A stretch of 64,000 bases of DNA, from the NCBI RefSeq assembly GCF_019443985.1, contig NZ_CP049303.1, positions 558,001 to 622,000 of the forward strand, written 5' to 3'. The first letter of the stretch is position 1. Each line of letters begins with the position of its first letter. This document shows positions 1,191-49,842 of the stretch, one piece after another. The stretch comes from Liquorilactobacillus hordei DSM 19519 (GTDB lineage: Bacteria; Bacillota; Bacilli; Lactobacillales; Lactobacillaceae). The notes under the pieces are model-generated. The model made no database searches and had not been told where the DNA came from. It saw only the letters and a program-made list of their open reading frames with translations. Made by a program: the position numbers and the translations under genes.

Positions 1191-2705
<1,515 letters not shown>

Positions 2706-2720
2706 TTGGAGATGATTTAA

Positions 2721-3041
2721 ATGGATGAAAAACAACAAGAGATAATTATGGGATTAATTATAAATGGAGGGAATGCTAAAGGTGAGGCCTTTGAAGCTAT
2801 TAAAGCAGCAAAAGAAGGTGATTTTGAGACAGCAGATGAAAAGTTAAAGAGTGCAGATGAATTCATGGCTCAAGCACACAATGCGCAAACTGGAATGTTA
2901 ACTGCTGAGGCCAATGGTGATCATGCAGAAGTTAATTTGTTAATGGTTCATGCACAAGATCATATTATGAATGCAATTACCTTTAGGGATTTGGCCGGAG
3001 AGCTGGTTGATTTGTATCGAAAGCTTGCTACAAAACAATAG
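2721..3041 (+). CDS. PTS lactose/cellobiose-type EIIA
   Basis: Small cytoplasmic phosphocarrier of 106 residues, the normal family length. It takes phosphate from HPr on a conserved histidine and passes it to EIIB. The motif LMVHAQDH contains the phosphorylated His (H77, equivalent to His78 of staphylococcal/lactococcal IIA-Lac) and the Asp (D80) that holds the trimer's metal ion. The rest is helical and Ala/Glu-rich, as in the three-helix trimeric IIA-Lac fold. GGAG lies about 9 nt before the ATG. It follows the GH1 gene by 15 nt and is the last gene of the PTS operon here. Confidence 0.94.
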   Translation: MDEKQQEIIMGLIINGGNAKGEAFEAIKAAKEGDFETADEKLKSADEFMAQAHNAQTGMLTAEANGDHAEVNLLMVHAQDHIMNAITFRDLAGELVDLYRKLATKQ

Positions 3042-3096
3042 ATAAGTTTCTTGTTGATTTTTGAAGTGAAGTTTATAATCACTTTTGAGGTGAGTA

Positions 3097-3273
3097 ATGG
3101 TGAACTATGTGTTGCGTGTAAAAAATCCCCAAAAGATTTTATTTGATGTTGCAAAATTCAATGTACGTGCGCAAAAGTTGTATCAAAAGATTGGTTTCGA
3201 AGTTGTGAATTATCATGAACAAGAAACAAATGGAGGAAGTTATCCGTTTGTTTTGATGGTTAAATCAGTCTGA
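3097..3273 (+). pseudogene. GNAT acetyltransferase C-terminal remnant (58 codons)
   Basis: A short frame encodes 58 residues that match only the end of a GNAT N-acetyltransferase: DVAKFNVRAQKLYQKIGFE is the classic 'N..A..LYek.GF' acetyl-CoA motif, followed by the final strands (PFVLMVK). The N-terminal two thirds, including the main acetyl-CoA loop, are absent and upstream frames are closed (stop at 3091). A GAGG (3087-3090) and an ATG happen to precede it, so a small product could still be made, but it cannot be a full enzyme. Most likely a decayed gene. Confidence 0.7.
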
Positions 3274-3307
3274 TAATTATCTGTTAGAAAAAGTTATGAC
3301 AATTGTC

Positions 3308-3345
3308 ATCCCCAGTCAATTACAATCCTGACTGGGGATTTTTAT
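3308..3345 (+). terminator. Intrinsic terminator
   Basis: A perfect 11-bp stem (ATCCCCAGTCA, 3308-3318, with TGACTGGGGAT, 3329-3339) is followed by a T run. It insulates the ABC/two-component operon from the PTS operon. Confidence 0.9.
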
Positions 3346-3378
3346 TGCCCTGACTTAAGATAAGTTACATGGGGGTGC

Positions 3379-7312: not shown

Positions 7313-7432
7313 AAAAAAAGAGATTAGGCCAAAAGTTAACTTTTGAACCTATCTCTTTTTTATTGTGAGTAAATATGTTCCATGAGTCAAAATTATCCGT
7401 CTAACTCTAAATTCTCTCGACTTATGCCACAC
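7313..7432 (-). repeat. 3'-end repeat element, copy 1 (includes terminator 7313-7362)
   Basis: Read on the minus strand, the element starts with GTGGCATAAGTCG (7430-7418), has a middle CATGGAACAT segment (about 7384-7375) and ends in a hairpin with TTCAAAAGTTAACTTTTG flanked by AGATAGG/CCTAATCT arms and T runs on both sides. It lies behind the NRAMP-like gene in that gene's orientation; the hairpin can also end the gpx transcript. Related copies: 14098-14269, 35316-35429, 61104-61205. Confidence 0.7.
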
Positions 7433-7461: not shown

Positions 7462-8691
7462 TTAAAACAATCCAATCACTGTTTTGATGCTTGCAAAGGC
7501 CATGAAGGCAACAACGAACCAACCAGAAAAAATTAACCATTTTGGATGGTGATAATCACCAACAATTTTTTTAGAAACACTAGCAATTAAAAGAATTGCC
7601 AGTGCAATAGGGAGGACAAATCCATTAGCTGCTCCCACAAAAACTAGGACCTTTGCGGGACTCCCGACAATATAGAAGATGACAGTTGAAATTACAATAA
7701 AACTAATGATTAATACTTTACGTGATTTTTGCAGGTCATTTTTTGATTTAACTGCAAAATCTAAGAAAGAAGTTGAGGTAAATGTTGAACCGAGAATGGA
7801 GGTCATCCCAGCTGCAAAGAGTAACAATCCAAAGAATTTGTAACCAAAGTTGCCTGCAGCATACTTAAAAATTGAAGCTGCGGGGTTCGTAGGATCAAGC
7901 TTGTATCCCGTTACGACAACAGAAAGCCCTGCTAGGAAAAGTAATACACGGATAAAAGAGGCAATTCCAATCCCTGTCAAGGCACCTTCGTTAACATACT
8001 TAATGTTTTGTTTACCCTTCATTCCACCTTCAATGAGTCGATGACCACCGGAAAATGAAATATAACCACCAACAGTTCCGCCAACAATTGTAACAATTGA
8101 ATAGAAATCAATTTTTGTAGGTAAAAATGTATGATGAACGGCCGCCTGATAAGGCACTGCCATGATAAAGATAATGTAAAGTAAGATAGCAACCTTAACA
8201 ACAGCCAGAATTTGAACAGTGCGATCCATAACAGTTAATGCATTTTTAACAACAAAGATGATAATTGCAAGCGCACCTGCAATTACGGCACCATTTTCGG
8301 GTGAGATGCCGAAAAGTACATTAAGCCCAAGGCCTGCACCACCAACATTTCCAATATTGAAGAAAAGGCCACCAACTGCAACAAGAAATGAAAGTAAATA
8401 TCCAAGGCCAGGGAAAATATCATTTGCAATTACTTGTGCTTTTTTACCGCTGACAACAATAATTCGCCAAACATTCATTTGGACAATAATATCAAAAACA
8501 ATACAAATTAGAATGGCAAAACCAAAATCAGCTCCCATTTGTCCGGTAAATGTAGCAGTTTGGGTTAGAAATCCTGGACCTACGGCAGCCATAGCCATTA
8601 AAAATGCAGCACCCATTGCAATACTGCGTGGAGAAGCTTTAGGGCCATTTAAATCAGGGATGTTATTAGAATCTTTTGATTTGTTCATCAT
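7462..8691 (-). CDS. NRAMP-related transporter of the 5-oxoprolinase cluster (YcsG-like)
   Basis: Integral membrane protein of 409 residues with about eleven spans, related to NRAMP (LeuT fold). It corresponds to B. subtilis YcsG, which sits beside ycsF-ycsI-kipI-kipA in the same way. The NRAMP metal-site motifs are missing: the first-span motif DPGN is replaced by GPGFLTQTATFTG (38-50), and the sixth-span MPH motif by GGTVGGYISFSGGHR (204-218). It is therefore unlikely to carry Mn2+ or Fe2+. Last gene of the pxp operon, 30 nt behind pxpA. Import of 5-oxoproline or another small organic acid is a plausible inference, not shown. Confidence 0.8.
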   Translation of the reverse strand: MMNKSKDSNNIPDLNGPKASPRSIAMGAAFLMAMAAVGPGFLTQTATFTGQMGADFGFAILICIVFDIIVQMNVWRIIVVSGKKAQVIANDIFPGLGYLLSFLVAVGGLFFNIGNVGGAGLGLNVLFGISPENGAVIAGALAIIIFVVKNALTVMDRTVQILAVVKVAILLYIIFIMAVPYQAAVHHTFLPTKIDFYSIVTIVGGTVGGYISFSGGHRLIEGGMKGKQNIKYVNEGALTGIGIASFIRVLLFLAGLSVVVTGYKLDPTNPAASIFKYAAGNFGYKFFGLLLFAAGMTSILGSTFTSTSFLDFAVKSKNDLQKSRKVLIISFIVISTVIFYIVGSPAKVLVFVGAANGFVLPIALAILLIASVSKKIVGDYHHPKWLIFSGWFVVAFMAFASIKTVIGLF

Positions 8692-8721
8692 AGTGAAATT
8701 CCTTCTCTCTTTATGGTTTCT

Positions 8722-9471
8722 TTAAAAAGCCTGAAGCTTAATTTTATTTTGCTGAAGTGTTTCACGGAGATTAGCGACAATCGCCAATGCTGCTGCATTA
8801 TCACCATGGACACAGATAGAATCAGCTTGTAGTGGTACGGTTGAGCCGTCAATCGCAGTTACTGCTTGATTCTTTACCATTTCAAGTACATGTGCAGCAA
8901 CTTCTGCGGGGTCAGTAATAACAGCATTTGCTTCACTTCTGGGTACTAGATTACCATCAGGCAAATAATTTCGATCACCGAACACTTCTTGTACGCAACG
9001 TATGCCAACAGTTTCTGCTGCTTGGACTGTTTTGCTACCTGCAAGAGCATAGATTGGAAGGTCTGGATCGATAGACTTAATTGCATGACAGATTGCTAAT
9101 GAGAGTTCATAGTCCTTAGCTGCCATATTATAAAGTGCCCCATGAGGCTTGACATGATGGAGTTTCTTTGAAGATGTAAAAGCCTGAAGTGCTCCAACTT
9201 GATAAGTTATTAGATGTTCAACTTCTGCAGGTTGCAATAGCATATTTCGTCTACCAAACCCTTGCAAGTCAGGATAACCGGGATGTGCCCCAATCCCGAC
9301 ACCCGCTTCTTCAGCTAAGGCGACAGTTTTAGCCATCACGTCAGGATCACTGGCGTGGAAACCACATGCAATATTAACGGAAGTTACTAGTTGAATAATT
9401 TCCTTGTCTTTTCCTAGATTATAGCGACCAAAGCTCTCACCTAAATCACTGTTTAAATCAATTTTTGTCAC
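8722..9471 (-). CDS. pxpA: 5-oxoprolinase subunit A (LamB/YcsF family)
   Basis: Cytoplasmic protein of 249 residues. With PxpB and PxpC it forms the prokaryotic ATP-dependent 5-oxoprolinase that opens 5-oxoproline to glutamate. The family signature DLNSDLGESFGRY at the N-terminus, VNIACGFHASDP, GAHPGYPDLQGFGRR, VKPHGALYN and the C-terminal CVHGDN motif are all present and intact. Start: GTG at 9471, 9 nt behind AGGAG; an upstream TTG (9480) touches the ribosome site. Sixth gene of the operon, 12 nt behind the UPF0317 gene. Confidence 0.93.
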   Translation of the reverse strand: MTKIDLNSDLGESFGRYNLGKDKEIIQLVTSVNIACGFHASDPDVMAKTVALAEEAGVGIGAHPGYPDLQGFGRRNMLLQPAEVEHLITYQVGALQAFTSSKKLHHVKPHGALYNMAAKDYELSLAICHAIKSIDPDLPIYALAGSKTVQAAETVGIRCVQEVFGDRNYLPDGNLVPRSEANAVITDPAEVAAHVLEMVKNQAVTAIDGSTVPLQADSICVHGDNAAALAIVANLRETLQQNKIKLQAF

Positions 9472-9483
9472 TGAAATCAACTC

Positions 9484-10284
9484 CTATTCATATTTTAATA
9501 TGGTATTTTTAACATCTGTCACCAGCATATGACCGGGAGCATGTGTAATTACGAATTCTGGTTTAACCTGCATAATTGCATTTTGTGGAGTTACACCGCA
9601 TGGCCAAAATACTGGAACTTCACCGTGCTTGATTGTAACAGGATCACCATAATCAGGTTTTGAAATGTCAGTGATCCCGATTGATTCAGGACTTCCAATA
9701 TGAATAGGTGCTCCATGAACCTTTGGCATCGCAGCAGTTACATTAACAGCAGTTACTACTTGGCTTTCAGGAATGGGGCGCATACTAACAACCATATTTC
9801 CATGGAATTTACCTGCAGATTCAAGAGGAATGGAGGTGTTATACATTGGGACATTAACTCCTTCTGTTATGTGGCGAATTTCAATTCCGGCTGCAATTAA
9901 CTCTGCTTCAAAAGAAAAACTACATCCAATTAGGAAACTTACTAAATCATCTTGCCAGTAATCTGTGACACTAGTGACCTCATCAGTGAAGATACCGTTA
10001 CGATAAATACGGTAACGCGGAAAGTCATTCGCTAAGTCAATATCTTGGGCAAATTTATGCAAACCGCGACTTCCAGCATCACTAACTTCCAAGATTGGAC
10101 AGGGACGAGGATTTCTTTGAGCAAATAATAAAAAATCATATGCTAAATTCTTTGGTAAAATTACTAAATTGGCTTGAGTATATCCTGAAGCCAATCCACT
10201 CGTAGGTTTAGTGAATTTTCCTTCACGAATCAGGTGACGAACTTCGACTGGTGACAATGACGTTATATCCTTCAATAAGTCCAT
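9484..10284 (-). CDS. UPF0317/DUF1445 putative hydro-lyase (YcsI-like)
   Basis: Cytoplasmic protein of 266 residues of the YcsI/UPF0317 family. Conserved segments are present: HLIREGKFTKPTSGLASGY, PCPILEVSD, FLIGCSFSFEAEL, GVNVPMY, PVFWPCGVTPQ and the C-terminal HAPGHMLVTD. The family is annotated as putative hydro-lyase. Its mammalian relative DGLUCY (C14orf159, which contains this domain) makes 5-oxo-D-proline from D-glutamate, which fits the neighbouring 5-oxoprolinase genes. The activity here is inferred. Good TAGGAGGTG site 5 nt before the ATG. Confidence 0.87.
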   Translation of the reverse strand: MDLLKDITSLSPVEVRHLIREGKFTKPTSGLASGYTQANLVILPKNLAYDFLLFAQRNPRPCPILEVSDAGSRGLHKFAQDIDLANDFPRYRIYRNGIFTDEVTSVTDYWQDDLVSFLIGCSFSFEAELIAAGIEIRHITEGVNVPMYNTSIPLESAGKFHGNMVVSMRPIPESQVVTAVNVTAAMPKVHGAPIHIGSPESIGITDISKPDYGDPVTIKHGEVPVFWPCGVTPQNAIMQVKPEFVITHAPGHMLVTDVKNTILKYE

Positions 10285-10295
10285 GAGGACACCTC

Positions 10296-11615
10296 CTAAA
10301 TTGTGGCTGTTAACTTATCCAACCAATTAATATCAGTTTTATTTTCAATATAATCAGGTTCATTTAATAACTGAACTAGAAAATCTAGATTTGTATTTAC
10401 CCCAGAGATAACTGCCTCATCAAGTGCTGTTTTCATTAGAGTAATTGCTTTTTTTCTTGAGGGGCCAAAAGTAATTATCTTGGCAACCATTGAATCATAG
10501 TTAGGAGGGATGATATATCCTTGATAGAGTCCGGTATCAACTCGAATACCATATCCACTTGGTAGGTGTAAAGCAGATATTTTACCGGCAGTTAATGCAT
10601 TTATTCGACATTCAAGTGCAAAATTATTTGTTGTAATGTACTCCTGATTAAAAGGCAAGGGTTCACCTCGAGCAATTAAAAGTTGCAATTCAACAAGATC
10701 AAGTCCACTTGTCAGTTCACTAACGGGATGTTCGACTTGTATGCGAGTGTTCATCTCCATAAAGTAAAAATGTTCAGGATCGTCTAATAAGAATTCCATT
10801 GTTCCTGCACCAACATAACCGATTTCTTTTGCGGCTTTCACAGAAACAGCGAACATTCTTTGCCGAGTTTTTTCTGGTAATGCAATTGCGGGTGCTTCCT
10901 CAATTACTTTTTGGTGATGTTGTTGGATAGTACAATCCCGTTCACCAACCGCAGTTACATTGCCTTGATGATCGGCAATGATTTGAACTTCGATATGGCG
11001 CGGATGTGGTAGGTATTTTTCAAGATACATATGATTATCATTGAAAGCGTGTTGAGCCTCGCTTTGAGCTAAGCCAAATTCTTTGCTGAAGTTTTCGGCA
11101 CTTTGAATGACCCGCATTCCTTTGCCACCACCACCTGCACTTGCTTTTAGCATAACTGGAAAACCAATTTTTTTAGCGAATGCTGAACCGCTAATTAAGT
11201 CGGTAAATTCAGTGTCTCCTCCTGGAACGACAGGGACTCCAGCCTTTAACATTGTCTCTCTGGCACGGGCTTTTTCACCCATTAATGCAATTACACGAGA
11301 TTGTGGACCAATAAAGGTGATTTTTTCATCTTCACATTTTTTAGCAAATTCCTCATTTTCAGATAAGAATCCATATCCAGGATGAATAGCATCAGATTGA
11401 GTGATTTCTGCCGCTGCAATTATTTCACGAATATTCAAGTAACTTTTATTTGGTTCAGCTGGGCCAATGCAGATGGCCTCATCTGCAAGTTGGACGTGTA
11501 GGCTATTTTTATCAGCTACGGAGTAAACCGCTACAGCCTTCAATCCTAGGTTGTGGCAAGCACGAATAATACGAACAGCAATTTCGCCGCGATTTGCAAC
11601 CAAAACTTTTTTCAA
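10296..11615 (-). CDS. accC: Biotin carboxylase (AccC-type) of the pxp cluster
   Basis: ATP-grasp enzyme of 439 residues that carboxylates the biotin on a carrier protein using bicarbonate and ATP. Motifs: N-terminal KKVLVANRGEIAVRI, the ATP loop GGGGKGM (161-167), the active Lys in HQKVIEEAP (about 234-242), and MEMNTRIQVEHPVSE (286-300). Start: TTG at 11615, 8 nt behind GAGG, giving MKKVLVANRG as in the family; a longer frame to 11675 overlaps accB and is rejected. It lies 10 nt behind accB. No fatty-acid genes and no acetyl-CoA carboxyltransferase genes are near, so it probably serves PxpB/PxpC rather than fatty acid synthesis (inference). The family name accC does not imply acetyl-CoA carboxylase. 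Confidence 0.93.
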   Translation of the reverse strand: MKKVLVANRGEIAVRIIRACHNLGLKAVAVYSVADKNSLHVQLADEAICIGPAEPNKSYLNIREIIAAAEITQSDAIHPGYGFLSENEEFAKKCEDEKITFIGPQSRVIALMGEKARARETMLKAGVPVVPGGDTEFTDLISGSAFAKKIGFPVMLKASAGGGGKGMRVIQSAENFSKEFGLAQSEAQHAFNDNHMYLEKYLPHPRHIEVQIIADHQGNVTAVGERDCTIQQHHQKVIEEAPAIALPEKTRQRMFAVSVKAAKEIGYVGAGTMEFLLDDPEHFYFMEMNTRIQVEHPVSELTSGLDLVELQLLIARGEPLPFNQEYITTNNFALECRINALTAGKISALHLPSGYGIRVDTGLYQGYIIPPNYDSMVAKIITFGPSRKKAITLMKTALDEAVISGVNTNLDFLVQLLNEPDYIENKTDINWLDKLTATI

Positions 11616-11625
11616 AATCAACACC

Positions 11626-12042
11626 TCAATTCTTGAGGACAATGAGTGGCGTATTGTACTCAACCGTACTCTCATTAGTGACCAAAATTTCGGTAATAGT
11701 ACCAGTAACCTCAGATTTAACCTCAGTCATCATTTTCATTGCCTCTATGATACCGATGACCTGACCTTTTTGAATCTTGTCACCAATTTTGACGAAAGTA
11801 TCTTCTTGTGGACTTGGTGAGGTATAAAAGGTTCCAACGAAAGGTGCATTTATTGTAATTTTTTTACTTTTTTCAGGTATTGTTTTTTTATCAGTCACGG
11901 ATTCTTGTTCATTTGTAATTGGAGCAGCAATTTTTATTTCTTTTTTTAAAGTAATCTGATTTTCACCATTCTTAATTTCGAGGTAGGTAAGACCAGCCTC
12001 TTGAAATTTACTAATTAATTCATCTAAACTTGGTATTTCCAT
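11626..12042 (-). CDS. accB: Biotin carboxyl carrier protein of the pxp cluster
   Basis: Carrier protein of 138 residues with an N-terminal helical segment (1-35), a charged linker (36-62) and a C-terminal biotinyl domain (63-138). The biotinylation motif IEAMKMM is intact, with the acceptor Lys at 103, and the thumb-like segment TFYTSPSPQEDTFV is AccB-like. AAAGGAG precedes the ATG. It lies between pxpC and the biotin carboxylase, and needs a biotin ligase encoded elsewhere. Confidence 0.93.
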   Translation of the reverse strand: MEIPSLDELISKFQEAGLTYLEIKNGENQITLKKEIKIAAPITNEQESVTDKKTIPEKSKKITINAPFVGTFYTSPSPQEDTFVKIGDKIQKGQVIGIIEAMKMMTEVKSEVTGTITEILVTNESTVEYNTPLIVLKN

Positions 12043-12056
12043 AACAGAAGTCTCCT

Positions 12057-13067
12057 TTAACTATTAGAAATTATTTCTTCGATTTTTTTACTTGTCCTTC
12101 TGATAGGACCAATTGGATATTGATACCGTTTTTGATAAATAGAAGTCGTTAAATCTTCTAAAAATTTGTATTGATTTCGTAGAGCATCGATCGCTTCCTT
12201 GAGTGAAACTTCTTCAAAGGTAAGTGGTTGACCTGCACCAAATTGAACAAATTTGCCAAGGTCTGCTCCAATTATTGTCGCAATCACTGGATAACCACCA
12301 GCGGTTTGACGGTCTGCCAATAAAACAATTGGCTGACCCGCTCTAGTTATTTGAATATTACCCAGTACGGTTCCTTCAGATAACATACTCTTTTGTGGTA
12401 TTTCAAGATTTGGACCATCTAGTCTGAAACCCATTCGATCGGTTTGTGATGAAATAGTGAAAGGCTCAGCAATAAATGTTTGCTTTGCATTTTCAGAAAA
12501 CAGGTTCCACTGAGGACCCTTGATAAAACGAATTGAACTGCCAGATGGTTCATGCCAAGGTAAGCTGCGGTTGGTTAGACTTGTGATTTGGTAGCAATTA
12601 TTGACCGGTAAACGATCTCCGCTGGCAAGTGCTCGCCCATAATATCCTCCAAGTGTAAGACGAGTATTAGTGGATTGACTATCCAGGATAGGTGCAACTT
12701 GAAGTCCGTTGTTAGCAAAAGCGATATAACCAAAGCGCCCACTTTTCATAGGATGAAATGCTAAGACATCGCCTCTTTTTACAGCATAAGTGGTATTCAA
12801 GTTGATAGCTGAATTATTCAGCGTAGGTGCAGAAGCACCTCCAGTAATTGCAATGAAGGTTTCAACATTAAATTGGATAGTTGGTCCCAGAATACTAAAC
12901 TCTAAGATTGCAGATTCTTCAGAATTATTTACTAGAACATTAGCTAGTCGGTATGAGTATTGATCAACGGCTCCCGAGACAGGGATACCTTTTGCTTGAT
13001 GGCCTATTCGTCCCAGGTCCTGGACGGTTGTGGCTAAACCTGAGTTAATAATCTCAATATTTGGCAT
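12057..13067 (-). CDS. pxpC: 5-oxoprolinase subunit C (KipA / AHS2 family)
   Basis: Protein of 336 residues with the AHS2 domain over nearly its full length: TTVQDLGRIGHQAKGIPVSG at the start, then LEFSILGPTIQF, RPLPV-like turn (RLPVNN), and LLADRQTAGGYPVIATI near the C-terminus. PxpC pairs with PxpB. The same two modules, fused, make the carboxyltransferase domain of urea carboxylase. AAAGGAGA lies 5 nt before the ATG; the gap to pxpB is 11 nt and to accB 14 nt. Confidence 0.93.
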   Translation of the reverse strand: MPNIEIINSGLATTVQDLGRIGHQAKGIPVSGAVDQYSYRLANVLVNNSEESAILEFSILGPTIQFNVETFIAITGGASAPTLNNSAINLNTTYAVKRGDVLAFHPMKSGRFGYIAFANNGLQVAPILDSQSTNTRLTLGGYYGRALASGDRLPVNNCYQITSLTNRSLPWHEPSGSSIRFIKGPQWNLFSENAKQTFIAEPFTISSQTDRMGFRLDGPNLEIPQKSMLSEGTVLGNIQITRAGQPIVLLADRQTAGGYPVIATIIGADLGKFVQFGAGQPLTFEEVSLKEAIDALRNQYKFLEDLTTSIYQKRYQYPIGPIRRTSKKIEEIISNS

Positions 13068-13078
13068 AGTCTTCTCCT

Positions 13079-13807
13079 TTATCCTGAAATTATTTTAAGC
13101 TGATATTCACCGTGAGCATCCAGTTCTTTTATCGCTGAGTATTCAGCACGATCGATTTGATAGAACTTAACCCAATCACCTGCTTGAAATGGTGGTAGAG
13201 GTCTGCTGGGAGTATAAAGTGTAATTGGAGTTCTACCAAGAATACGCCATCCTCCAGGTGAATCAACGGGATACATTCCAGCTTGTTTACCTGCAATTGC
13301 GACACTTCCTGGTGCAATTGAAGACCGTGGAACAGAGAGCCTAGGCATTGCAATTTGATCAGGGACATTTCCCATAAAAGTAAATCCAGGAAGAAAACCC
13401 ATCATATAAATAAAATAATTGTTTTTTGAATGAAGTTTGATTAATTCTTTAACGCTTAGATTACCAAAAGCGGCAACATCTTCGAGGTCTATTCCAAATT
13501 CAGAATCATAGCAGACAGGAATTTCGAAAGTCCGTCCCTGATTATGCTTTTTATCTGAAACATAATGTGAAAGAAAATTTTTTAATTTAAGGCAGAATTC
13601 GTAATAAGTTGTTTTTCTAATATCAAAGTTGATAGTTAAGGTTCTGTATGCAGGAACAACATCTGTGATTTCGTAGTTAAATTCAGATTGTATTTGGTGT
13701 GCTAACTCTTGAATTATTTGGTTTTCTGAAATATCTATTTGTTCAGGGAAAACAATATGGATACCTTGGTCACCTGCAGGTATAAAATCGTATTTGTAAT
13801 TTATCAC
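13079..13807 (-). CDS. pxpB: 5-oxoprolinase subunit B (KipI / AHS1 family)
   Basis: Protein of 242 residues, first gene of the operon. AHS1 hallmarks: GFLPGFTFMG, PRLSVPRSSIAPGSVAIAG, MYPVDSPGGWRILGRTP. In B. subtilis the homologue KipI was first described as a kinase inhibitor; the metabolic role as 5-oxoprolinase subunit is now the better supported one. Start: GTG at 13807, 8 nt behind AGGGG; an upstream GTG at 13816 overlaps the ribosome site. The region upstream holds a lone TATAAT on the minus strand (13928-13923) without a clear -35. Confidence 0.92.
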   Translation of the reverse strand: MINYKYDFIPAGDQGIHIVFPEQIDISENQIIQELAHQIQSEFNYEITDVVPAYRTLTINFDIRKTTYYEFCLKLKNFLSHYVSDKKHNQGRTFEIPVCYDSEFGIDLEDVAAFGNLSVKELIKLHSKNNYFIYMMGFLPGFTFMGNVPDQIAMPRLSVPRSSIAPGSVAIAGKQAGMYPVDSPGGWRILGRTPITLYTPSRPLPPFQAGDWVKFYQIDRAEYSAIKELDAHGEYQLKIISG

Positions 13808-14097
13808 GTATAACACCCCTAAATGAGTTGAAAATAATTTTTGGATTTTTATAATTGCATAGTTAACAAAATAACGTTTATTGAGAGATTTTTAAAGAGA
13901 ATCTAACTAAAACCTAATTTAAATTATAGAAACTCGTTTTTTAATTATTTAATTAATTGGACACGATATATTTCTTTGAATAATAAAGTGTATATTTATC
14001 TATTAAATATTATTTATAACGAATTCAAAAAAAGGAAAAGATTAAAATATTTTAAACAACAAAAGAAAGTTAATCTCTGAAACATATTTAATAAGAC
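13808..14097. other. AT-rich intergenic region upstream of the pxp operon
   Basis: About 290 bases with no coding frame and no RNA gene that I recognise. It must hold the promoter of the pxp operon. The only candidate is TATAAT on the minus strand at 13928-13923, with a poor -35. No operator could be identified. Confidence 0.5.
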
Positions 14098-14269
14098 AAA
14101 AAAGACTGGGGCAAAAGTTAATTTTTTGTCTCAGTCTCCTCAACTCATTTTGTATAAACGTGTTCTATAAGTTAAAATTCTCCGGCTAACTTTGAATTAC
14201 TTGTAGCAAAGCACTTGCTATGTTCATAATTTCGAGTTGGTATTCAAATTTTCGCGACTTATGTTCCAC
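14098..14269 (-). repeat. 3'-end repeat element, copy 2 (includes terminator 14098-14138)
   Basis: On the minus strand, behind the DASS gene: head GTGGAACATAAGTCG (14269-14255), a variable part containing a small GCAAGTGCTTTGC hairpin, segment AGTTAGCCGGAGAATTTT, then TATAGAACACGTTTATAC, and finally a hairpin with GACTGAGAC/CCCCAGTC arms, core CAAAA..TTTTG and T run. The longest copy in the window. Confidence 0.7.
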
Positions 14270-14302: not shown

Positions 14303-15718
14303 TTAATAAACACCACAAATCTTCATCCACAAACTACCGAGCCCAAGCCAGACAATAAGATAGAAAATACCTAAGATGGCATTAAGACGCCACCAGTCTT
14401 TTTGGGAGACATAGCCTGCTGAAAATAAAATAGGCGCTGGCCCGTTACTATAATGAGTAGTTGATGCAAATAAATTACCAAAGAATCCAAGTGACAATGC
14501 AGCCAACATTGGAGGAACACCAGAGGCAACCGCTACTCCTAGTAAAGCAGAGTACATTGCACTGACATGTGCTGTCGCACTCGCAAAGAGGTAATGTGAG
14601 TAGAAGTAAAATAAAATTAAAACAATCAAGACAAGAGGCCATGATAAGCCATGCACACTTGTAGAGATAGTCTTGCTTAGCCAAGGAATGAAACCAAGAA
14701 CGTTCAATTCGTTAGCCATCATTACCAAGATGGAGAACCATGTTAGTGTATTCCAGGCACCTTTTTCCTGTAAAATATCACTCCAGCTAAGCACACCGGT
14801 TATCAGTAAAAGAGAAAGCGCAATGAATGCAGTCAAAGTTGCATCGACCTTCAACGTATCACCTAAAACCCAAAGAAGTAAAGCAACAATGAATATTCCT
14901 GCCATAAATTTTTCAGGTAGAGACATCTTACCCATCTCTGAAAGTTGTTCATCAGCCCAAGCCTTAGCATTAGGAGTTTCTTTGATTTCAGGTGGGTAAA
15001 GTTTATATATGATGTATGGAACAAGTACTAAACTTATAATCCCAGGTACAAGCGCAGCAATAAACCAACCCATCCAAGAAACATTAATATGTGCACTTTT
15101 GGCTAGAGATTGCGCTAATGGATTACCGGCCATTGCAGTTAAAAACATTGCAGCAGTAATCATATTTCCATGAAATTCAGCAAAAGTCAAAAATGATCCG
15201 ACCTTGCGCTGAGTATTATCCTCGGGCGAAGAACCAAAGGAATGGGATAAGGAATTAATAATTGGAAACATAATCCCACCTGCACGAGCTGTATTGCTTG
15301 GTGTTGCAGGAGCAAGGATTAAGTCAACGCCAATTAATGAATATGCCAAACCTAGTGTTTTTTTACCAAAAATTCTAACAAATCCAAGAGCAATTCTACG
15401 ACCTAGTCCAGTCTTAATAAATCCTCTGGAAATGAAAAATGCCATAGCAATTAACCAAATACTATTATTACCAAAACCGGCAACAGCAGTATCAATAGGA
15501 ACTTCATGCGTAATAACTGTTGTAGTGAATCCTAAAATTGCAACTGCCCCAATTGGTAACGGTTGAGTGATACAGCCAATAATTGTAGCAACAAAGATTG
15601 CAAGCATATGCCACGCAACAACTGAAACACCAGCCGGGCGAAGCGGAGTCGTTAGCCATATGATTAGTGCTACAGCAATTGGAATAATAAACTTTTTATA
15701 ATTTATTTTGGTAGCCAA
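14303..15718 (-). CDS. DASS-family (SLC13-type) dicarboxylate transporter, probably for malate
   Basis: Integral membrane protein of 471 residues with about twelve spans, of the divalent anion:Na+ symporter family (CitT/SodiT1-like plant-plastid type). Family motifs are visible: AFFISRGFIKTGLGRRIA, the substrate-site region APATPSNTARAGGIMFPI and the second-half STTHYSNGPAPILFSAGY. Start: TTG at 15718 behind TAAGGAGGA (9 nt), giving MATKINYKK. It follows the malolactic enzyme gene by 15 nt, so malate uptake (and possibly lactate exchange) is the likely job. Most lactobacilli described use an AEC-family permease (MleP) here. Confidence 0.88.
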   Translation of the reverse strand: MATKINYKKFIIPIAVALIIWLTTPLRPAGVSVVAWHMLAIFVATIIGCITQPLPIGAVAILGFTTTVITHEVPIDTAVAGFGNNSIWLIAMAFFISRGFIKTGLGRRIALGFVRIFGKKTLGLAYSLIGVDLILAPATPSNTARAGGIMFPIINSLSHSFGSSPEDNTQRKVGSFLTFAEFHGNMITAAMFLTAMAGNPLAQSLAKSAHINVSWMGWFIAALVPGIISLVLVPYIIYKLYPPEIKETPNAKAWADEQLSEMGKMSLPEKFMAGIFIVALLLWVLGDTLKVDATLTAFIALSLLLITGVLSWSDILQEKGAWNTLTWFSILVMMANELNVLGFIPWLSKTISTSVHGLSWPLVLIVLILFYFYSHYLFASATAHVSAMYSALLGVAVASGVPPMLAALSLGFFGNLFASTTHYSNGPAPILFSAGYVSQKDWWRLNAILGIFYLIVWLGLGSLWMKICGVY

Positions 15719-15733
15719 GATACCAGATCCTCC

Positions 15734-17353
15734 TTAGTATTTGGGTGCCCATTTGGCATCATCTATTGCTGAAGCAACATCTGTTATTTTTTCTCTGGTT
15801 AGTCCTTGAACTTTAGCACTTTCAGCGACGGCTAAAGCAACTGTTGTTGAGAAATGATCTAATTTTGAAACAGGAGGTAAGACAGCTGCTCCAGCTTCTT
15901 TAGGGTCAACAATTCCACCTAATGAATGAGCGGCTGCTGAAATCATCTCATCATTTAAGATTGTTGCAGTTGAAGCAATCACGCCAAGTCCAAGGCCAGG
16001 ATATACAAGCGCATTATTTGCTTGTCCAATATGATAAGAAACACCATTGAATTCAACATCAGGTGCAGGAATACCAGTGGCAACGAGTGCACGACCTTCA
16101 GTCCATTCAATTAAATCATGAGCTTTAGCCTCTGCTAATTTTGTTGGATTAGAGAGAGGGAAGATAACAGGTCTTTCAGTATGGGCAGCCATTTCACGAA
16201 TTACTTCTTCTGTGAATGCGCCAGGTTGTGTAGATGTACCAACAAGAATTGTTGGGTGCACAGCTTTTACAACTGCCAATAGGTTAGTTAATTCAGCGGC
16301 ATTAGCAAATTCACTTCTTGAACGAGCAAATGGCTTTTGTTCAGGAGTTAAAGTTGAATCATCATCAAATAACAATCCTTGTTTGTCAACCATGTAAAAA
16401 TGCTTACGTGCTTCTTCTTCGCTCAAACCTTCTTGAACAAATTCATCGCAAATTCGTTTTGTAATCCCAGCACCTGCAGTACCAGCTCCAAAGCAAAGAT
16501 ATATCTGATCAGTCATTTTCTGTTTGGAGATATTTAATGCGCCAAGAATACCAGCAAGAGTGATAATTCCTGTACCCTGGATATCATCATTAAATGTTGT
16601 AATTTTATCTTTGTATTTGTTAAGCAAATTAGCAGCATTGTCGCGACCAAAATCTTCAAAGTGCAGATAAAGATTTGGGAATAAGCGTTCAGCAGCAGAT
16701 ACAAACTTATCTACAAATTCGTAATACTTGTCGCCGGTGATTCGACTATGGTGATTACCAAGATAAAGCGAATCCTGTAAGAGTTTGTCGTTATTTGTAC
16801 CAGCATCTAGAACAACTGGTAATACTTGACTAGGATCAATTCCAGCTGCTGCAGTATAAACCATCAACTTACCAACAGCAATATCAACACCGTTTGTTCC
16901 CCAATCGCCAATTCCTAAGATTCCTTCAGCATCGGTAACAACAATTAACCGAATGTTACGACCGTTAGCAGCATTTTTAAGTGAGTTTTCAATTGCATCT
17001 TGATTATCGATGGATAAGAATGTCGCATTCTGTGATTGTACAAATAATTCGCTGTAATTTTCAATAGTATCTGCAATTGTTGGATCATAGACAATTGGCA
17101 TAAATTCAACTACATGTTCACTAAAGAGCTTGTAGAAAAGTACATGATTTTCATTGAAGATTTGCATCAAGAATAATCGCTTTTCAAGGTCTGTTGGTTT
17201 TGTCTGGTATTGTGCATATGTTTGTGCAACCTGTTGGTCAAGTGTTTGAACATAGGGAGGCAAGAGACCTTCCAAACCAAGTTCTTTACGTTCTTCTAAT
17301 GTAAAAGCAGTACCTTTATTCTTGAATGGATCATTTAAAATATTCATTCCCAT
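15734..17353 (-). CDS. mleA: Malolactic enzyme
   Basis: NAD+- and Mn2+-dependent enzyme of 539 residues that decarboxylates L-malate directly to L-lactate, raising pH and generating proton motive force. Homologous to malic enzymes, but the sequence follows the lactic-acid-bacterial malolactic type: N-terminus [57 protein letters not shown] loop [11 protein letters not shown], and FPLSNPT. Length equals the family (about 540). AAGGAAGG lies 10 nt before the ATG. Operon with the DASS transporter; divergent from mleR. An NAD-malic enzyme is the alternative, judged less likely. Confidence 0.87.
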
Positions 17354-17431
17354 GTTATTTAAACCTTCCTTTTGTTAAGATATACATAGAATAGACCCTT
17401 TGTTTTTTTATAGTCAAAAAATATTTTTTTA

Positions 17432-17446
17432 ATAAGATATTCTTAT
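17432..17446. promoter_or_regulatory. LysR-type operator (T-N11-A) in the mleA/mleR intergenic region
   Basis: ATAAGATATTCTTAT has symmetric arms ATAAG and CTTAT around five bases and fits the LysR box T-N11-A exactly. It lies between the divergent mleA and mleR genes, 47 nt before the mleR start, where MleR would bind. Confidence 0.6.
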
Positions 17447-17492
17447 AATGAGATTTTAAATGCCGCTATATGTGGGGAAGGATGGACTTTTT

Positions 17493-18383
17493 ATGAATAC
17501 AAGAGATCTCGAATATTTTATAAGGCTTACAGAAATAAAAAATTTCTCGAAAGTTGCACAAGAATTTGGTGTCAGTCAGCCTACAATTACTTTTGCATTA
17601 AAGAGATTGGAAGAAGAAGTGAATTCACGGTTAATTATCAGGCATCGTGCACAGGGAGGTTTGTTAATAACTGATAGTGGTGCACAGCTATTGAATCATG
17701 CTAAACGAATGTTATTACATTATAATTTGGTCCAAAAAGAAATTACAAATAGTCGTCTAAAGATGCTATCGATGGGTTTGCCTCCAATTATTGAGAATAA
17801 TTATTTCCCAGAAGTTGCTAAAAACTTAAAAAAGGCAAGTTTGTTGGATAAAATTCAGACAATGGAGTACGGTTCAAGGACAACTTTGCGAGCATTACAA
17901 AATGGAGAAATCGACATGGCACTATTAGGGTCAATTGATCCTTTGAGTGATGAGTTAATCATAACTGAGGAATTCGATCGTCAACCCTTTGAGATATTTG
18001 TAGCTAAAAATCATCCACTAGCACAGAAAAAAGAAGTTTGGTTTAAGGATCTAAGAAGAGAAGATTTTGTATTGTTTAAAAATGGTTTTGTGCATAATCA
18101 TGCGTTTGATTTGCTTGCTGCACGCAATCATTTTCGACCACATGTTGTCTTTAGATCAAATGGAACACATAGTTTAATGAATTTGATTGCTGATGGTGTT
18201 GGAATTGGACTTTTGACTGCGGTAGTTAACCCTATTCGTAAAGACATCGTTAAGATAAAATTATTAGATACAGATGTTCCAATGTTTGTAACGAGTATTG
18301 CATATCGAAGATCCCACGTTTTTAATAATTTGCAGCAATCAATTTTAGATAATATTAGGGGAACACTTATTAAAAATGAGTGA
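17493..18383 (+). CDS. mleR: LysR-family regulator of malolactic fermentation (MleR-like)
   Basis: LysR-type transcription factor of 296 residues. N-terminal winged HTH: MNTRDLEYFIRLTEIKNFSK, then VSQPTITFALKRLEEEV; the C-terminal part is the periplasmic-binding-like effector domain, expected to sense malate. The opening residues resemble lactococcal MleR. Start: ATG at 17493 behind GGAAGGA; an earlier ATG at 17460 would add eleven residues not seen in the family. Divergent from mleA with an operator between them, the classical arrangement for an activator of mle genes that also controls itself. Confidence 0.85.
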   Translation: MNTRDLEYFIRLTEIKNFSKVAQEFGVSQPTITFALKRLEEEVNSRLIIRHRAQGGLLITDSGAQLLNHAKRMLLHYNLVQKEITNSRLKMLSMGLPPIIENNYFPEVAKNLKKASLLDKIQTMEYGSRTTLRALQNGEIDMALLGSIDPLSDELIITEEFDRQPFEIFVAKNHPLAQKKEVWFKDLRREDFVLFKNGFVHNHAFDLLAARNHFRPHVVFRSNGTHSLMNLIADGVGIGLLTAVVNPIRKDIVKIKLLDTDVPMFVTSIAYRRSHVFNNLQQSILDNIRGTLIKNE

Positions 18384-30117: not shown

Positions 30118-30247
30118 TATACTAAGGGTGTATTTTTGTATGGGTTACCGTGGTTAGAATGTTTCAAATAACTTTCCCCATTTGTGCCGATCAAGAATTA
30201 CAACTATTATTAGATAGTGCCAGATAGGCACAAGGAGGAGTTTATTC
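30118..30247 (+). promoter_or_regulatory. Promoter and long 5' leader of the cold shock gene
   Basis: An extended -10 (TGGTATACT; TATACT at 30118-30123) with a weak -35 starts a leader of about 115 nt. TTGTGCC (30182-30188) is perfectly complementary to GGCACAA (30227-30233), whose end overlaps the AAGGAGGAG ribosome site (30232-30240). Such a stem could modulate translation with temperature (inference). Confidence 0.55.
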
Positions 30248-30448
30248 ATGGAACAAGGTACAGTAAAGTGGTTTAATGCAGACAAAGGTTTTGGTTTTAT
30301 TACTCGCGAAGATGGTAGCGATGTATTCGTTCATTTTTCAGCTATCCAAGGCGACGGTTTCAAAACTTTAGATGAAGGCCAACATGTAACTTTCGACGTT
30401 GAAGAAAGCGACCGTGGACCACAAGCAGTTAACGTTACAAAAGACTAA
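30248..30448 (+). CDS. csp: Cold shock protein, CspA family
   Basis: Single-stranded nucleic acid-binding protein of 66 residues, the standard length. RNP1 (KGFGFI) and RNP2 (VFVHFS) are intact, and the sequence begins [17 protein letters not shown]. It acts as RNA chaperone. Very strong ribosome site AAGGAGGAG 7 nt before the ATG, long structured leader, and a strong terminator. Codon use is of a highly expressed gene. Confidence 0.96.
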
Positions 30449-30464
30449 TTTAAAGTCAAAAAAC

Positions 30465-30503
30465 GACCGAAGTGAGACAGCTGTCTCGCTTCGGCTTTTT
30501 TTA
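30465..30503 (+). terminator. Intrinsic terminator of the csp gene
   Basis: CCGAAGTGAGACAG (30467-30480) and CTGTCTCGCTTCGG (30481-30494) form a perfect inverted repeat followed by TTTTTTT. Confidence 0.92.
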
Positions 30504-40539: not shown

Positions 40540-40780
40540 CATATCGAAAAGAGGTTGCAAATGATATTAGTAGCTGCTATGAAATGTTAAGGCATTGGTG
40601 ACTTGCAGTGAAAGGAGATTTTGCCGAAATGACTAGTTGCTTTAACAACTAGTTGTTGGGATTCAGCTTAAGAGGCTGGGGACTGTCGTACAGATTTGTA
40701 CGGAGAGCTATCGAGTATGACTTTTTATTAAATTATGGATTATAAAAGTCTTACTGCTGCTAGCGGTATGACTTTTTTAT
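40540..40780 (+). ncRNA. Lysine riboswitch (L box) with terminator
   Basis: The aptamer core matches the L box: AGAGGTTGC (about 40550-40558), GTGAAAGGAGA..TTGCCGAA (about 40608-40630), CTGGGGACTGTC (about 40676-40687) and GGAGAGCTATC (40702-40712), with P1 formed by CATATCGA and TCGAGTATG. The expression platform has three matching segments: GACTTTT (40719-40725), AAAAGTC (40744-40750) and GACTTTT (40770-40776) plus T run. The first two form an antiterminator, the last two the terminator (40744-40780). With lysine bound the terminator should win and shut off the transporter gene. Confidence 0.93.
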
Positions 40781-44335: not shown

Positions 44336-45905
<1,570 letters not shown>

Positions 45906-45913
45906 AACGGAAA

Positions 45914-45940
45914 CCTACACACGATTGTTGAAACTTTGTT
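45914..45940 (+). other. 16S pre-rRNA processing stem, 3' arm
   Basis: CCTACAC and GAAACTTTGTT, the partner arms of the segment at 44228-44257. Confidence 0.8.
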
Positions 45941-45979
45941 TAGTTTTGAGAGGCCTACTTCTCTATTTGAGGATGTTAT

Positions 45980-46054
<75 letters not shown>

Positions 46055-46073
46055 TCCTTTTTATATTTTTTAT

Positions 46074-46146
46074 GGGGCCTTAGCTCAGCTGGGAGAGCGC
46101 CTGCTTTGCACGCAGGAGGTCATCGGTTCGATCCCGTTAGGCTCCA
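46074..46146 (+). tRNA. tRNA-Ala (TGC)
   Basis: Acceptor GGGGCCT/AGGCTCC, anticodon TGC in CTTTGCACG, T arm GGTTCGATCCC. Second spacer tRNA of the rrn operon. CCA is not encoded. Confidence 0.97.
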
Positions 46147-46177
46147 TTGACAAGATAATTGTCAAATTTGTTCTTTG

Positions 46178-46198
46178 AAAACTAGATAATATTTTTCT
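46178..46198 (+). other. 23S pre-rRNA processing stem, 5' arm
   Basis: AAAACTAG followed by TAATATTT is nearly perfectly complementary to 49251-49269 behind 23S. The helix encloses 23S and is the expected RNase III site. Confidence 0.75.
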
Positions 46199-46297
46199 AA
46201 AATAATTAACAAACCGAGAACACCGCGTTTTAAAGAGTTTAAAACAAGAAAAATCTTGAACGCTAAACTCATAACCGCTTTACCGTAGGTAAAGATA

Positions 46298-49216
<2,919 letters not shown>

Positions 49217-49250
49217 AGAAAGAAATGCGGACGGTAGTTGATTAAGGAAG

Positions 49251-49269
49251 AGAAATATTAGCTAGTTTT
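49251..49269 (+). other. 23S pre-rRNA processing stem, 3' arm
   Basis: AGAAATATTAGCTAGTTTT, partner of 46178-46198 with one mismatch and a one-base bulge. Confidence 0.75.
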
Positions 49270-49298
49270 GAGAGAACAAAGTTTTCTCAAGTAAAAGA

Positions 49299-49416
49299 GT
49301 GCGGTGATGATGGCAAGAAGGATACACCTGTTCCCATGTCGAACACAGAAGTTAAGCTTCTTAGCGCCGATAGTAGTTGGGGGATCGCCCCCTGCGAGGA
49401 TAGGTCGTTGCCGTGC
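49299..49416 (+). rRNA. 5S ribosomal RNA
   Basis: 118 nt with the closing stem GTGCGGTGATG/CGTTGCCGTGC and the conserved core CACCTGTTCCCATGTCGAAC and AGAAGTTAAGCTTCTTAGCG. Confidence 0.96.
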
Positions 49417-49422
49417 AAATAT

Positions 49423-49495
49423 GGAGGATTAGCTCAGTTGGGAGAGCGTCTGCCTTACAAGCAGAGGGTCACAGGTTCGAGCCCTGTATCCTCCA
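49423..49495 (+). tRNA. tRNA-Val (TAC)
   Basis: Acceptor GGAGGAT/ATCCTCC, anticodon TAC in CCTTACAAG. First of nine tRNAs behind 5S. Confidence 0.97.
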
Positions 49496-49499
49496 TCTT

Positions 49500-49572
49500 G
49501 AGTCGTTAGCTCAGTCGGTAGAGCATCTGACTTTTAATCAGAGGGTCGACAGTTCGAGCCTGTCACGACTCA
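49500..49572 (+). tRNA. tRNA-Lys (TTT)
   Basis: Acceptor GAGTCGT/ACGACTC, anticodon TTT in ACTTTTAAT. Confidence 0.97.
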
Positions 49573-49594
49573 TTTCTTTTTTATTTTTATATTT

Positions 49595-49679
49595 GCGGGT
49601 GTGGCGGAATTGGCAGACGCACTAGATTTAGGTTCTAGCGTCGAAAGACGTGGGGGTTCAAATCCCTTCACCCGCACCA
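49595..49679 (+). tRNA. tRNA-Leu (TAG)
   Basis: Acceptor GCGGGTG/CACCCGC, anticodon TAG in a TTTAGGT loop, long variable arm (GTCGAAAGAC). The 3' CCA is encoded here, unlike the neighbours. Confidence 0.96.
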
Positions 49680-49684
49680 TTTTT

Positions 49685-49757
49685 GCCGACTTAGCTCAGT
49701 TGGTAGAGCATCTGATTTGTAATCAGAGGGTCGGGCGTTCGAATCGTCTAGTCGGCA
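49685..49757 (+). tRNA. tRNA-Thr (TGT)
   Basis: Acceptor GCCGACT/AGTCGGC, anticodon TGT in a TTTGTAA loop. Confidence 0.96.
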
Positions 49758-49770
49758 TTTATATTTTTTT

Positions 49771-49842
49771 GCGGAAGTAGTTCAGTGGTAGAACATCACC
49801 TTGCCAAGGTGGGGGTCGCGGGTTCGAATCCCGTCTTCCGCT
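49771..49842 (+). tRNA. tRNA-Gly (GCC)
   Basis: Acceptor GCGGAAG/CTTCCGC, anticodon GCC in CTTGCCAAG, discriminator T. Confidence 0.96.

What the first reader, a model, noticed from the sequence alone, without database searches (positions are those of the whole stretch)
7462..13807. 5-oxoprolinase operon that contains every part of a split urea-carboxylase-like biotin enzyme
Seen: one minus-strand operon with gaps of 10-30 nt encodes PxpB (AHS1), PxpC (AHS2), a biotin carrier protein with intact IEAMKMM, a biotin carboxylase with intact ATP and catalytic motifs, a UPF0317 protein, PxpA and an NRAMP-like transporter. Known: PxpABC is an ATP-dependent 5-oxoprolinase without biotin; in urea carboxylase the carboxyltransferase domain is homologous to KipA plus KipI (PxpC plus PxpB) and is flanked by biotin carboxylase and carrier domains. 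Inference: the operon may encode a multi-subunit biotin-dependent carboxylase whose acceptor is 5-oxoproline or a related lactam/amide, either activating it by N-carboxylation before PxpA opens the ring, or making a different product. No acetyl-CoA carboxyltransferase subunit is near.
Basis: partly seen in the sequence, partly recalled or inferred. Interest (0 to 1): 0.78.

Follow-up and report, generated by a model that had tools for sequence, protein, structure and literature searches.

The report
5-oxoprolinase operon with dedicated biotin module
A lactic acid bacterium carries its 5-oxoprolinase genes in one operon with a private copy of a biotin carboxylase and its carrier protein, and distant microbes show the same partnership, which suggests that some 5-oxoprolinases are driven by biotin-bound CO2.

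Summary
One minus-strand operon (13807-7462), with a terminator-like hairpin on each side, encodes PxpB, PxpC, BCCP with intact EAMKM, BC with every catalytic residue checked, UPF0317/PF07286, PxpA and an NRAMP-type protein. The host is close to Liquorilactobacillus hordei.
The BC is not the cell's acetyl-CoA carboxylase BC, which sits elsewhere beside accD/accA. In 151 Lactobacillaceae genomes, PxpC and PxpA share the same 24. A distinct "pxp-type" BC is intact in 21 of these, decayed in 3, and was not detected in the other 127.
BC genes also sit with pxpABC in Staphylococcus-like genomes, another Bacillota genome, alphaproteobacteria, a Pseudomonas plasmid and haloarchaea, in different gene orders. 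One origin on the PxpBC tree is rejected (AU p=0.0002). PDB entry 9yx5 lists PxpB/PxpC homologues with the biotin carboxylase AccA3.
Against: the PxpBC core is the ordinary one (Arg where urea carboxylase has its general-base Lys); six of 24 loci lost BC or BCCP yet keep pxpABC; most Bacillota loci have no local BC.
Best reading: a biotin-coupled variant of PxpABC that probably carboxylates 5-oxoproline before PxpA opens it. Substrate and chemistry are inferred. The S. aureus operon is in print, with accBC read as fatty-acid genes.

The parts
13079..13807 (-). pxpB (KipI/CT_C_D); GTG start; Arg156 (codon 13342-13340) lies at the place of the urea carboxylase general-base Lys
   Evidence: PF02682 221 bits; TIGR00370 178.3 over cut-off 145.55; start; Arg
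12057..13067 (-). pxpC (KipA/CT_A_B)
   Evidence: PF02626 274 bits; TIGR00724 276.1 over 230.2; NF045499 PxpC equivalog 246.1 under its cut-off 500
11626..12042 (-). biotin carboxyl carrier protein, biotinyl Lys103 (codon 11736-11734) in EAMKM
   Evidence: PF00364; TIGR00531 119.7 over 115.2
10296..11615 (-). biotin carboxylase, 439 aa, TTG start; all 11 checked catalytic residues present; lacks an 8-residue loop after CRINA that ACC-type BCs have
   Evidence: PF00289, PF02786, PF02785; NF006367 638.7 over 597
9484..10284 (-). UPF0317 / DUF1445 protein, Pfam name D-glutamate cyclase
   Evidence: PF07286 236 bits; NF003969 424.3 over 324
8722..9480 (-). pxpA (LamB/YcsF)
   Evidence: PF03746 339 bits; NF003814 365.7 over 226
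7462..8691 (-). NRAMP/APC-superfamily transporter; by its place beside pxp genes probably of the YcsG/PxpT kind (5-oxoproline or Mn2+ uptake)
   Evidence: PF01566 98 bits over 29.8, far below the MntH model's cut-off; YcsG and PxpT papers; not aligned to them here
14090..14140 (-). terminator-like hairpin between the upstream anion symporter and pxpB
   Evidence: fold -11.4 kcal/mol, z -2.2
7314..7366 (-). terminator-like hairpin after the transporter gene
   Evidence: fold -19.8 kcal/mol, z -7.0

Best explanation
The operon encodes a biotin-coupled variant of the prokaryotic 5-oxoprolinase PxpABC. Shown: the BC and BCCP are catalytically intact in sequence, the BC belongs to a lineage apart from the cell's ACC BC, and it is inherited with PxpBC in the family. 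Inferred: BC uses ATP and bicarbonate to load CO2 on the BCCP biotin (Lys103). PxpBC, homologous to the carboxyltransferase part of urea carboxylase, passes the carboxyl group to the lactam of 5-oxoproline, most likely on N1. PxpA then hydrolyses the activated ring, and the N-carboxy-glutamate loses CO2 to give glutamate. UPF0317 may feed the ring substrate from D-glutamate, and the NRAMP-type protein may import it. In short, ATP would enter through carboxybiotin, not (or not only) through direct phosphorylation by PxpBC.
For: Distribution in Lactobacillaceae: PxpC and PxpA in the same 24 of 151 genomes; pxp-type BC (55-100% identity) intact in 21 of those 24 and decayed in 3. The best hit outside them is G005 at 53%, which is ACC-type with an AccD-motif neighbour. 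Separate clades: 23 pxp-type Lactobacillaceae BCs (100/99) against the 21 ACC BCs of the family that were fetched (100/99). All 29 operon genomes searched have an accA match (weak in G324) and at least one further BC. The same linkage in 4 Staphylococcus-like genomes, in L162 and in 13 of 21 plasmid regions read, in at least five gene orders. One clade for the biotin-linked PxpBC is rejected, p-AU 0.00018 (quick tree). PDB 9yx5 lists PxpB/PxpC homologues (chains W, V) and the AccA3 biotin carboxylase in one entry; its PxpB homologue is of the same Arg type. Four single-contig proteins join PxpC to a BCCP domain.
Against: The PxpB/PxpC core is the same in biotin-linked and unlinked operons, so nothing in the active site shows a change of chemistry. 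B. subtilis PxpABC is reported to work when the three proteins are mixed (recalled from Niehaus 2017, not held). The mechanism assumed in print is phosphorylation by PxpBC (PMC13274462, passages). Two genomes keep pxpABC with no operon BCCP and a BC that lost its ATP lid and catalytic residues; a third has a broken BC (its NRAMP gene is broken too); three more lack the operon BCCP. E. coli K-12, 65 of 66 Bacillota-sample regions and 8 of 21 plasmid regions show no local BC; L266 has BC but no BCCP in the stretch. 9yx5 was seen only as chain lists. The fusion proteins are single-contig records. The PxpBC tree is a quick one, and 23 of its 84 rows have odd letter make-up. For the BCs themselves one clade is not rejected (p 0.066), so linkage by repeated transfer of one BC stock remains possible.
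Confidence: 0.5

Rival explanations
1. PxpABC works as an ordinary biotin-free, phosphorylating 5-oxoprolinase, and the BC/BCCP pair in the operon serves acetyl-CoA carboxylase (a second accBC) or couples nitrogen salvage to fatty acid supply.
For: PxpBC core residues are unchanged. BC or BCCP is lost or decayed in 6 of 24 Lactobacillaceae loci while pxpABC stays open. Published readings of the S. aureus operon (PMC11315280) and of the extra accBC in Lactiplantibacillus pentosus (PMC12427679) call these genes ACC.
Against: A complete separate ACC locus exists. The pxp-type BC is a distinct clade, seen only with pxp genes in the family sample. No accA/accD is near the window's operon. Linkage arose more than once on the PxpBC tree.
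Confidence: 0.25
2. A biotin-dependent carboxylase built from BC, BCCP and PxpBC acts on another lactam, amide or cyclic imide (for example 5-oxo-D-proline made by the UPF0317 D-glutamate cyclase, or a hydantoin-like compound), and PxpA hydrolyses the carboxylated product.
For: UPF0317/PF07286 lies in the window's operon and in many relatives. Two active-site classes of biotin-linked PxpB exist (Arg 35 of 42, Lys 7 of 42), so substrates may differ. The neighbourhoods of alphaproteobacterial and haloarchaeal loci differ.
Against: The window's PxpBC core is that of the known 5-oxoprolinase. UPF0317 is missing from otherwise alike operons (L099, L100, L101, L110, L250; also L107, which lacks BCCP too). 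The NRAMP gene is of the kind needed for 5-oxoproline use in C. glutamicum.
Confidence: 0.2
3. A split urea carboxylase making allophanate from urea.
For: All four urea carboxylase domains are present as separate subunits.
Against: General-base Lys is Arg in PxpB. No protein in the genome passes the allophanate hydrolase cut-off (best 209 of 511 bits). Operon scores are far below the urea carboxylase model's cut-off.
Confidence: 0.03

Closest known systems
PxpABC prokaryotic 5-oxoprolinase (B. subtilis, E. coli, C. glutamicum)
   Same: PxpA, PxpB, PxpC families; conserved PxpB/PxpC core shared with unlinked Bacillota loci and E. coli; NRAMP-type neighbour in B. subtilis and C. glutamicum
   Different: adds BCCP and BC in the same operon; E. 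coli K-12 has none there
S. aureus six-gene operon with pxpA, pxpB, pxpC, accB and accC (CcpE target, PMC11315280; passages seen)
   Same: 5-oxoprolinase and accBC genes in one operon
   Different: the paper counts accBC under fatty acid synthesis; in the passages seen no 5-oxoprolinase assay and no UPF0317 is named
Urea carboxylase / urea amidolyase (K. lactis 3va7, 5i8i)
   Same: BC, CT (AB+CD) and BCCP domains, the CT part homologous to PxpC+PxpB
   Different: one chain; Lys general base versus Arg here; allophanate hydrolase partner not found here
PDB 9yx5: AccA3 with 'Allophanate hydrolase subunit 1/2'
   Same: PxpB/PxpC homologues in one solved entry with a biotin carboxylase subunit; Arg-type PxpB
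   Different: AccA3 is a shared acyl-CoA carboxylase alpha subunit of mycobacteria, not a dedicated operon BC; the entry's title, organism and map were not seen
Heteromeric acetyl-CoA carboxylase AccBC
   Same: BCCP and BC families
   Different: no AccA/AccD here; separate clade; loop deletion

Membership tests
PxpABC 5-oxoprolinase | PxpA, PxpB and PxpC family proteins encoded together | tested here: met
   PF03746, NF003814, TIGR00370, TIGR00724 over cut-offs
PxpABC 5-oxoprolinase | NCBI equivalog model for PxpC (NF045499) | tested here: not met
   246.1 bits, cut-off 500; so the PxpC name is used here at subfamily level only
PxpABC 5-oxoprolinase | conserved PxpB/PxpC core residues | tested here: met
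   core motifs shared with unlinked loci; Arg at the UC-Lys place in 26 of 26 Lactobacillaceae PxpB, the window's included. Some positions outside the core are lost in Lactobacillaceae, e.g. PxpC R112 kept in 4 of 26, PxpB G104 in 4 of 26
PxpABC 5-oxoprolinase | ATP-dependent ring opening of 5-oxoproline | not testable with these tools
   needs purified proteins
Urea carboxylase | BC, CT-AB, CT-CD and BCCP domains | tested here: met
   all four, on separate chains
Urea carboxylase | general-base Lys (K1605 of K. lactis urea amidolyase) | tested here: not met
   Arg156 in PxpB
Urea carboxylase | allophanate hydrolase in the genome | tested here: not met
   best 209 bits, cut-off 511
Acetyl-CoA carboxylase (AccBC) | AccA/AccD carboxyltransferase encoded with it | tested here: not met
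   only matches at contig 1066860-1068249, beside another BC
Acetyl-CoA carboxylase (AccBC) | accC equivalog TIGR00514 | tested here: not met
   615.3 bits, cut-off 626.5; the broader NF006367 subfamily model is met, 638.7 over 597
Acetyl-CoA carboxylase (AccBC) | BCCP equivalog TIGR00531 | tested here: met
   119.7 bits, cut-off 115.2
Biotin-dependent carboxylases (superfamily) | biotinyl Lys motif and BC catalytic residues | tested here: met
Biotin-dependent carboxylases (superfamily) | carboxyl transfer from biotin to an acceptor by PxpBC | not testable with these tools
   needs assay

The most novel reading that the evidence does not exclude
PxpBC is a general carboxybiotin-using lactam-activating carboxyltransferase. 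Some lineages carry a dedicated BC/BCCP, others borrow the housekeeping one (as AccA3 may in mycobacteria), and prokaryotic 5-oxoprolinase is at heart a biotin enzyme that works by N-carboxylation, not phosphorylation.
Probability: 0.2. Interest if true: 0.88.

Novelty: new variant of a known kind. Interest (0 to 1): 0.6.

Why it matters
PxpABC is widespread, its ATP-coupling step is called an assumption in print (PMC13274462, passages), and PxpB/PxpC are homologues of a biotin carboxyltransferase without a known use of biotin. A private BC/BCCP inherited with pxp genes in one family, and joined to pxpBC more than once elsewhere, makes biotin coupling directly testable. It would also change the reading of accB/accC genes in S. 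aureus and lactobacilli that are now counted as fatty acid genes (PMC11315280, PMC12427679; passages).

Tried and rejected
Structure prediction, and with it a look at PDB titles through fold search, was switched off. The single genome-contig scan gave only four loci, three of Liquorilactobacillus and one Lactobacillus sp..

A search for residues conserved in unlinked PxpBC but lost in biotin-linked ones found no position lost in all five biotin-linked groups; the most was three (PxpB P207 and L209, PxpC T58). So no sequence signature of biotin use was found for the window's type. Among the biotin-linked groups the urea carboxylase Lys appears only in the alphaproteobacterial/haloarchaeal one (7 of 7); 2 of 95 unlinked loci have Lys too.

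I checked whether fatty-acid auxotrophs keep the pxp BC: not usable, since all 29 operon genomes have an accA match (weak, 51 bits, in G324).

I considered the BCCP-PxpC fusions as strong evidence and demoted them, because each is a single-contig record and other odd fusions turned up in the same search.

Ten literature searches: in the listings (titles, starts of abstracts) and in the passages that I read of eight papers I saw no proposal of a biotin-dependent PxpABC; most listed papers were not opened. Niehaus 2017 is not held, and subscription papers and preprints are not covered.
Full report
WHAT IS THERE. The window (64 kb; G000:C3:558001-622000) comes from a genome close to Liquorilactobacillus hordei: the PxpC is 99% identical to one named so. 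On the minus strand lie PxpB 13807-13079, PxpC 13067-12057, BCCP 12042-11626, BC 11615-10296, UPF0317 10284-9484, PxpA 9480-8722 and an NRAMP-type transporter 8691-7462. Gaps are 3-30 nt. Terminator-like hairpins stand before pxpB and after the transporter. Next to the operon lie an anion symporter, a malolactic enzyme and a LysR regulator.

THE BIOTIN MODULE IS INTACT AND NOT THE CELL'S ACC. BCCP has EAMKM (K103) and BC has all 11 catalytic residues checked (E. coli numbering recalled). The same genome has another BC at contig 1065243-1066577, followed by carboxyltransferase matches at 1066860-1067393 and 1067491-1068249, its only PF01039 and PF03255 matches, and a 1178-aa frame that is presumably pyruvate carboxylase. 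All 29 operon genomes searched (24 Lactobacillaceae, 4 Staphylococcus-like, G324) have an accA match (weak, 51 bits, in G324) and at least one further BC. On a 65-row tree 23 Lactobacillaceae pxp-linked BCs form one clade (100/99) and the 21 fetched ACC BCs of that family another (100/99); the three decayed BCs and some second ACC copies are not in it. The pxp-type BCs of Lactobacillaceae lack eight residues after the CRINA motif; the Staphylococcus-like BCs and L162 keep them.

DISTRIBUTION. In 151 Lactobacillaceae genomes PF02626 occurs in 24 and PF03746 in the same 24. The pxp-type BC (55-100% identity) is intact in 21 of these 24; in G073 it is broken and in G039 and G072 degenerate. The best hit outside the 24 is 53% and ACC-type; a decayed copy elsewhere could have escaped the E<=1e-100 limit. 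Fisher tests on 24/0/0/127 and 21/3/0/127 give p of 2e-28 and 8e-23; they ignore relatedness. BCCP is in the operon in 19 of the 24 loci (window plus L097-L119); L102, L103, L107, L113 and L117 lack it.

OUTSIDE THE FAMILY. The Bacillota sample had PF02626 in 66 of 199 genomes. I fetched 66 regions from 62 of them (not G205, G240, G316, and not G000 again); 16 of the 66 are under 12 kb. One (L162) has BC and BCCP beside pxpBC; matches in L124 and L125 are 1071-aa frames, probably CarB. The class sample had PF02626 in 114 of 151 genomes. I fetched 30 regions of my own choice. In the one family f109 (Staphylococcus-like is my guess; 11 genomes with a match, 4 fetched) the four first copies have BCCP and BC and the two second copies fetched have none; two other regions hold fused urea carboxylases, and L209 has only a weak BCCP-model match. 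The plasmid search matched 742 records, of which 60 were listed. I read 21 of my own choice: 13 have BC beside pxpBC (Limosilactobacillus, Lactiplantibacillus, Ensifer, Azospirillum, Thioclava, four Rhizobium, Pseudomonas aeruginosa, three haloarchaea; in one of these, L266, no BCCP was seen) and 8 do not. E. coli K-12 has none. Gene orders differ: B-C-BCCP-BC-(UPF0317)-A; A-BCCP-BC-B-C; BCCP-BC-x-B-C-A; B-C-A-BCCP-BC-x; and haloarchaeal orders with divergent genes.

TREES. On a PxpB+PxpC tree of 84 of 140 usable loci (37 biotin-linked, 44 not, 2 urea carboxylases, 1 odd; 36 unlinked Bacillota drawn at random, five near-duplicates dropped) the biotin-linked label needs 6 changes, at least 4 forced by starred branches. 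Holding the biotin-linked rows together is rejected (p-AU 0.00018). The alphaproteobacterial and haloarchaeal rows group with urea carboxylase (98*). This is a quick tree without bootstrap, with long rows and 23 rows of odd letter make-up. For the BC tree one clade of pxp-linked BCs is not rejected (p 0.066), so repeated transfer of one BC stock cannot be excluded.

ACTIVE SITE. K1605 of K. lactis urea amidolyase, its likely general base (K1605A leaves 9.5% of kcat; PMC5770610, passages), aligns with Arg156 of the window's PxpB. Among 42 biotin-linked loci 35 have Arg and 7 (alphaproteobacteria and haloarchaea) have Lys. Among 95 unlinked loci 91 have Arg, 2 Lys and 2 His. Both fused urea carboxylases have Lys. 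Core positions of PxpB and PxpC are shared between biotin-linked and unlinked Bacillota loci. Some other conserved positions are lost in Lactobacillaceae (PxpB G104 kept in 4 of 26, P207 in 7, L209 in 4; PxpC R112 in 4), but no residue is lost in all five biotin-linked groups (there PxpB is numbered from an ORF start three codons upstream). So there are two kinds of biotin-linked split systems, and the window belongs to the Arg kind.

PHYSICAL LINK. PDB entry 9yx5 is listed with 'Allophanate hydrolase subunit 2' (chain V) and 'subunit 1' (chain W), and is also among the entries of the AccA3 biotin carboxylase subunit. The chain W sequence is Arg-type. AccA3 is the name of a shared mycobacterial acyl-CoA carboxylase subunit (PMC11001197, passages). 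I saw only these listings, not the title, organism, map or paper of the entry; searches for a paper listed none that I recognised.

AGAINST. Published views: PxpBC is assumed to phosphorylate 5-oxoproline and PxpA to open it (PMC13274462, passages), and PxpB with PxpC shows ATP hydrolysis (PMC8453981, passages). Reconstitution of B. subtilis PxpABC from three proteins is recalled, not read. Loss of BC or BCCP in six Lactobacillaceae loci with pxpABC open suggests that the local module is dispensable there, or that these systems are decaying (G073 has a broken NRAMP gene too). The three genus-g13 genomes without operon BCCP have small biotinyl-type proteins (84-87 aa) elsewhere that could replace it, but a genome with operon BCCP (G146) has one as well; G039 and G072 have a single biotinyl-type match, beside the ACC BC.

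TRANSPORTER. B. subtilis YcsG was concluded to import Mn2+ (PMC10448178, passages). C. glutamicum PxpT, 50% identical to YcsG, was needed for growth on 5-oxoproline (PMC13274462, passages). Either may hold here.

VERDICT. The biotin module belongs to the PxpBC system (my estimate about 0.75). That it carboxylates 5-oxoproline is likely but unproven (0.5 for the full statement). The S. aureus pxp-acc operon is in print as a CcpE target (PMC11315280, passages), split urea-carboxylase genes were noticed in 2011 (PMC3199775, section 8), and NCBI names PxpC relatives 'biotin-dependent carboxyltransferase family protein'. What I did not see in the ten searches is the proposal or test of a biotin-dependent PxpABC.

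Noticed in passing
L113 (BC at 2316-3353) and L117 (11484-12521): Two 1.4-Mb Lactobacillaceae genomes keep a 346-aa BC remnant without ATP lid and catalytic residues as an open frame, with operon BCCP gone and pxpABC intact: a possible pseudo-enzyme.
   Followed up: partly
L118: BC and NRAMP genes are split while BCCP, PxpA, PxpB and PxpC stay open.
   Followed up: partly
L251 (Lactiplantibacillus plantarum plasmid p6): The whole pxp-biotin operon sits on a plasmid typed as mobilizable between IS30-type transposase genes, so it may move.
   Followed up: no
L262:4743-5294, L270:4821-5294, L259:4821-5294, L263:9462-9953: Rhizobium and Pseudomonas plasmid operons carry a second BCCP-like protein without the biotinyl lysine.
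   Followed up: partly
L253, L254, L256, L257, L265, L266, L269: Alphaproteobacterial and haloarchaeal clusters have the urea-carboxylase-type Lys in PxpB and group with urea carboxylase: possibly a different split carboxylase.
   Followed up: partly
L272:2248-12819: G054 has a second, divergent PxpB-PxpC-BC-BCCP cluster with a PxpA about 6.5 kb downstream, besides its normal operon.
   Followed up: partly
window 14303-18383: The pxp operon lies next to an anion symporter, a malolactic enzyme and a LysR regulator gene.
   Followed up: no
window 44336-50224: rRNA operon (16S, 23S, 5S) with 11 tRNA genes; elsewhere a lysine riboswitch at 40541-40718 and a cspA-type element at 30119-30497.
   Followed up: no
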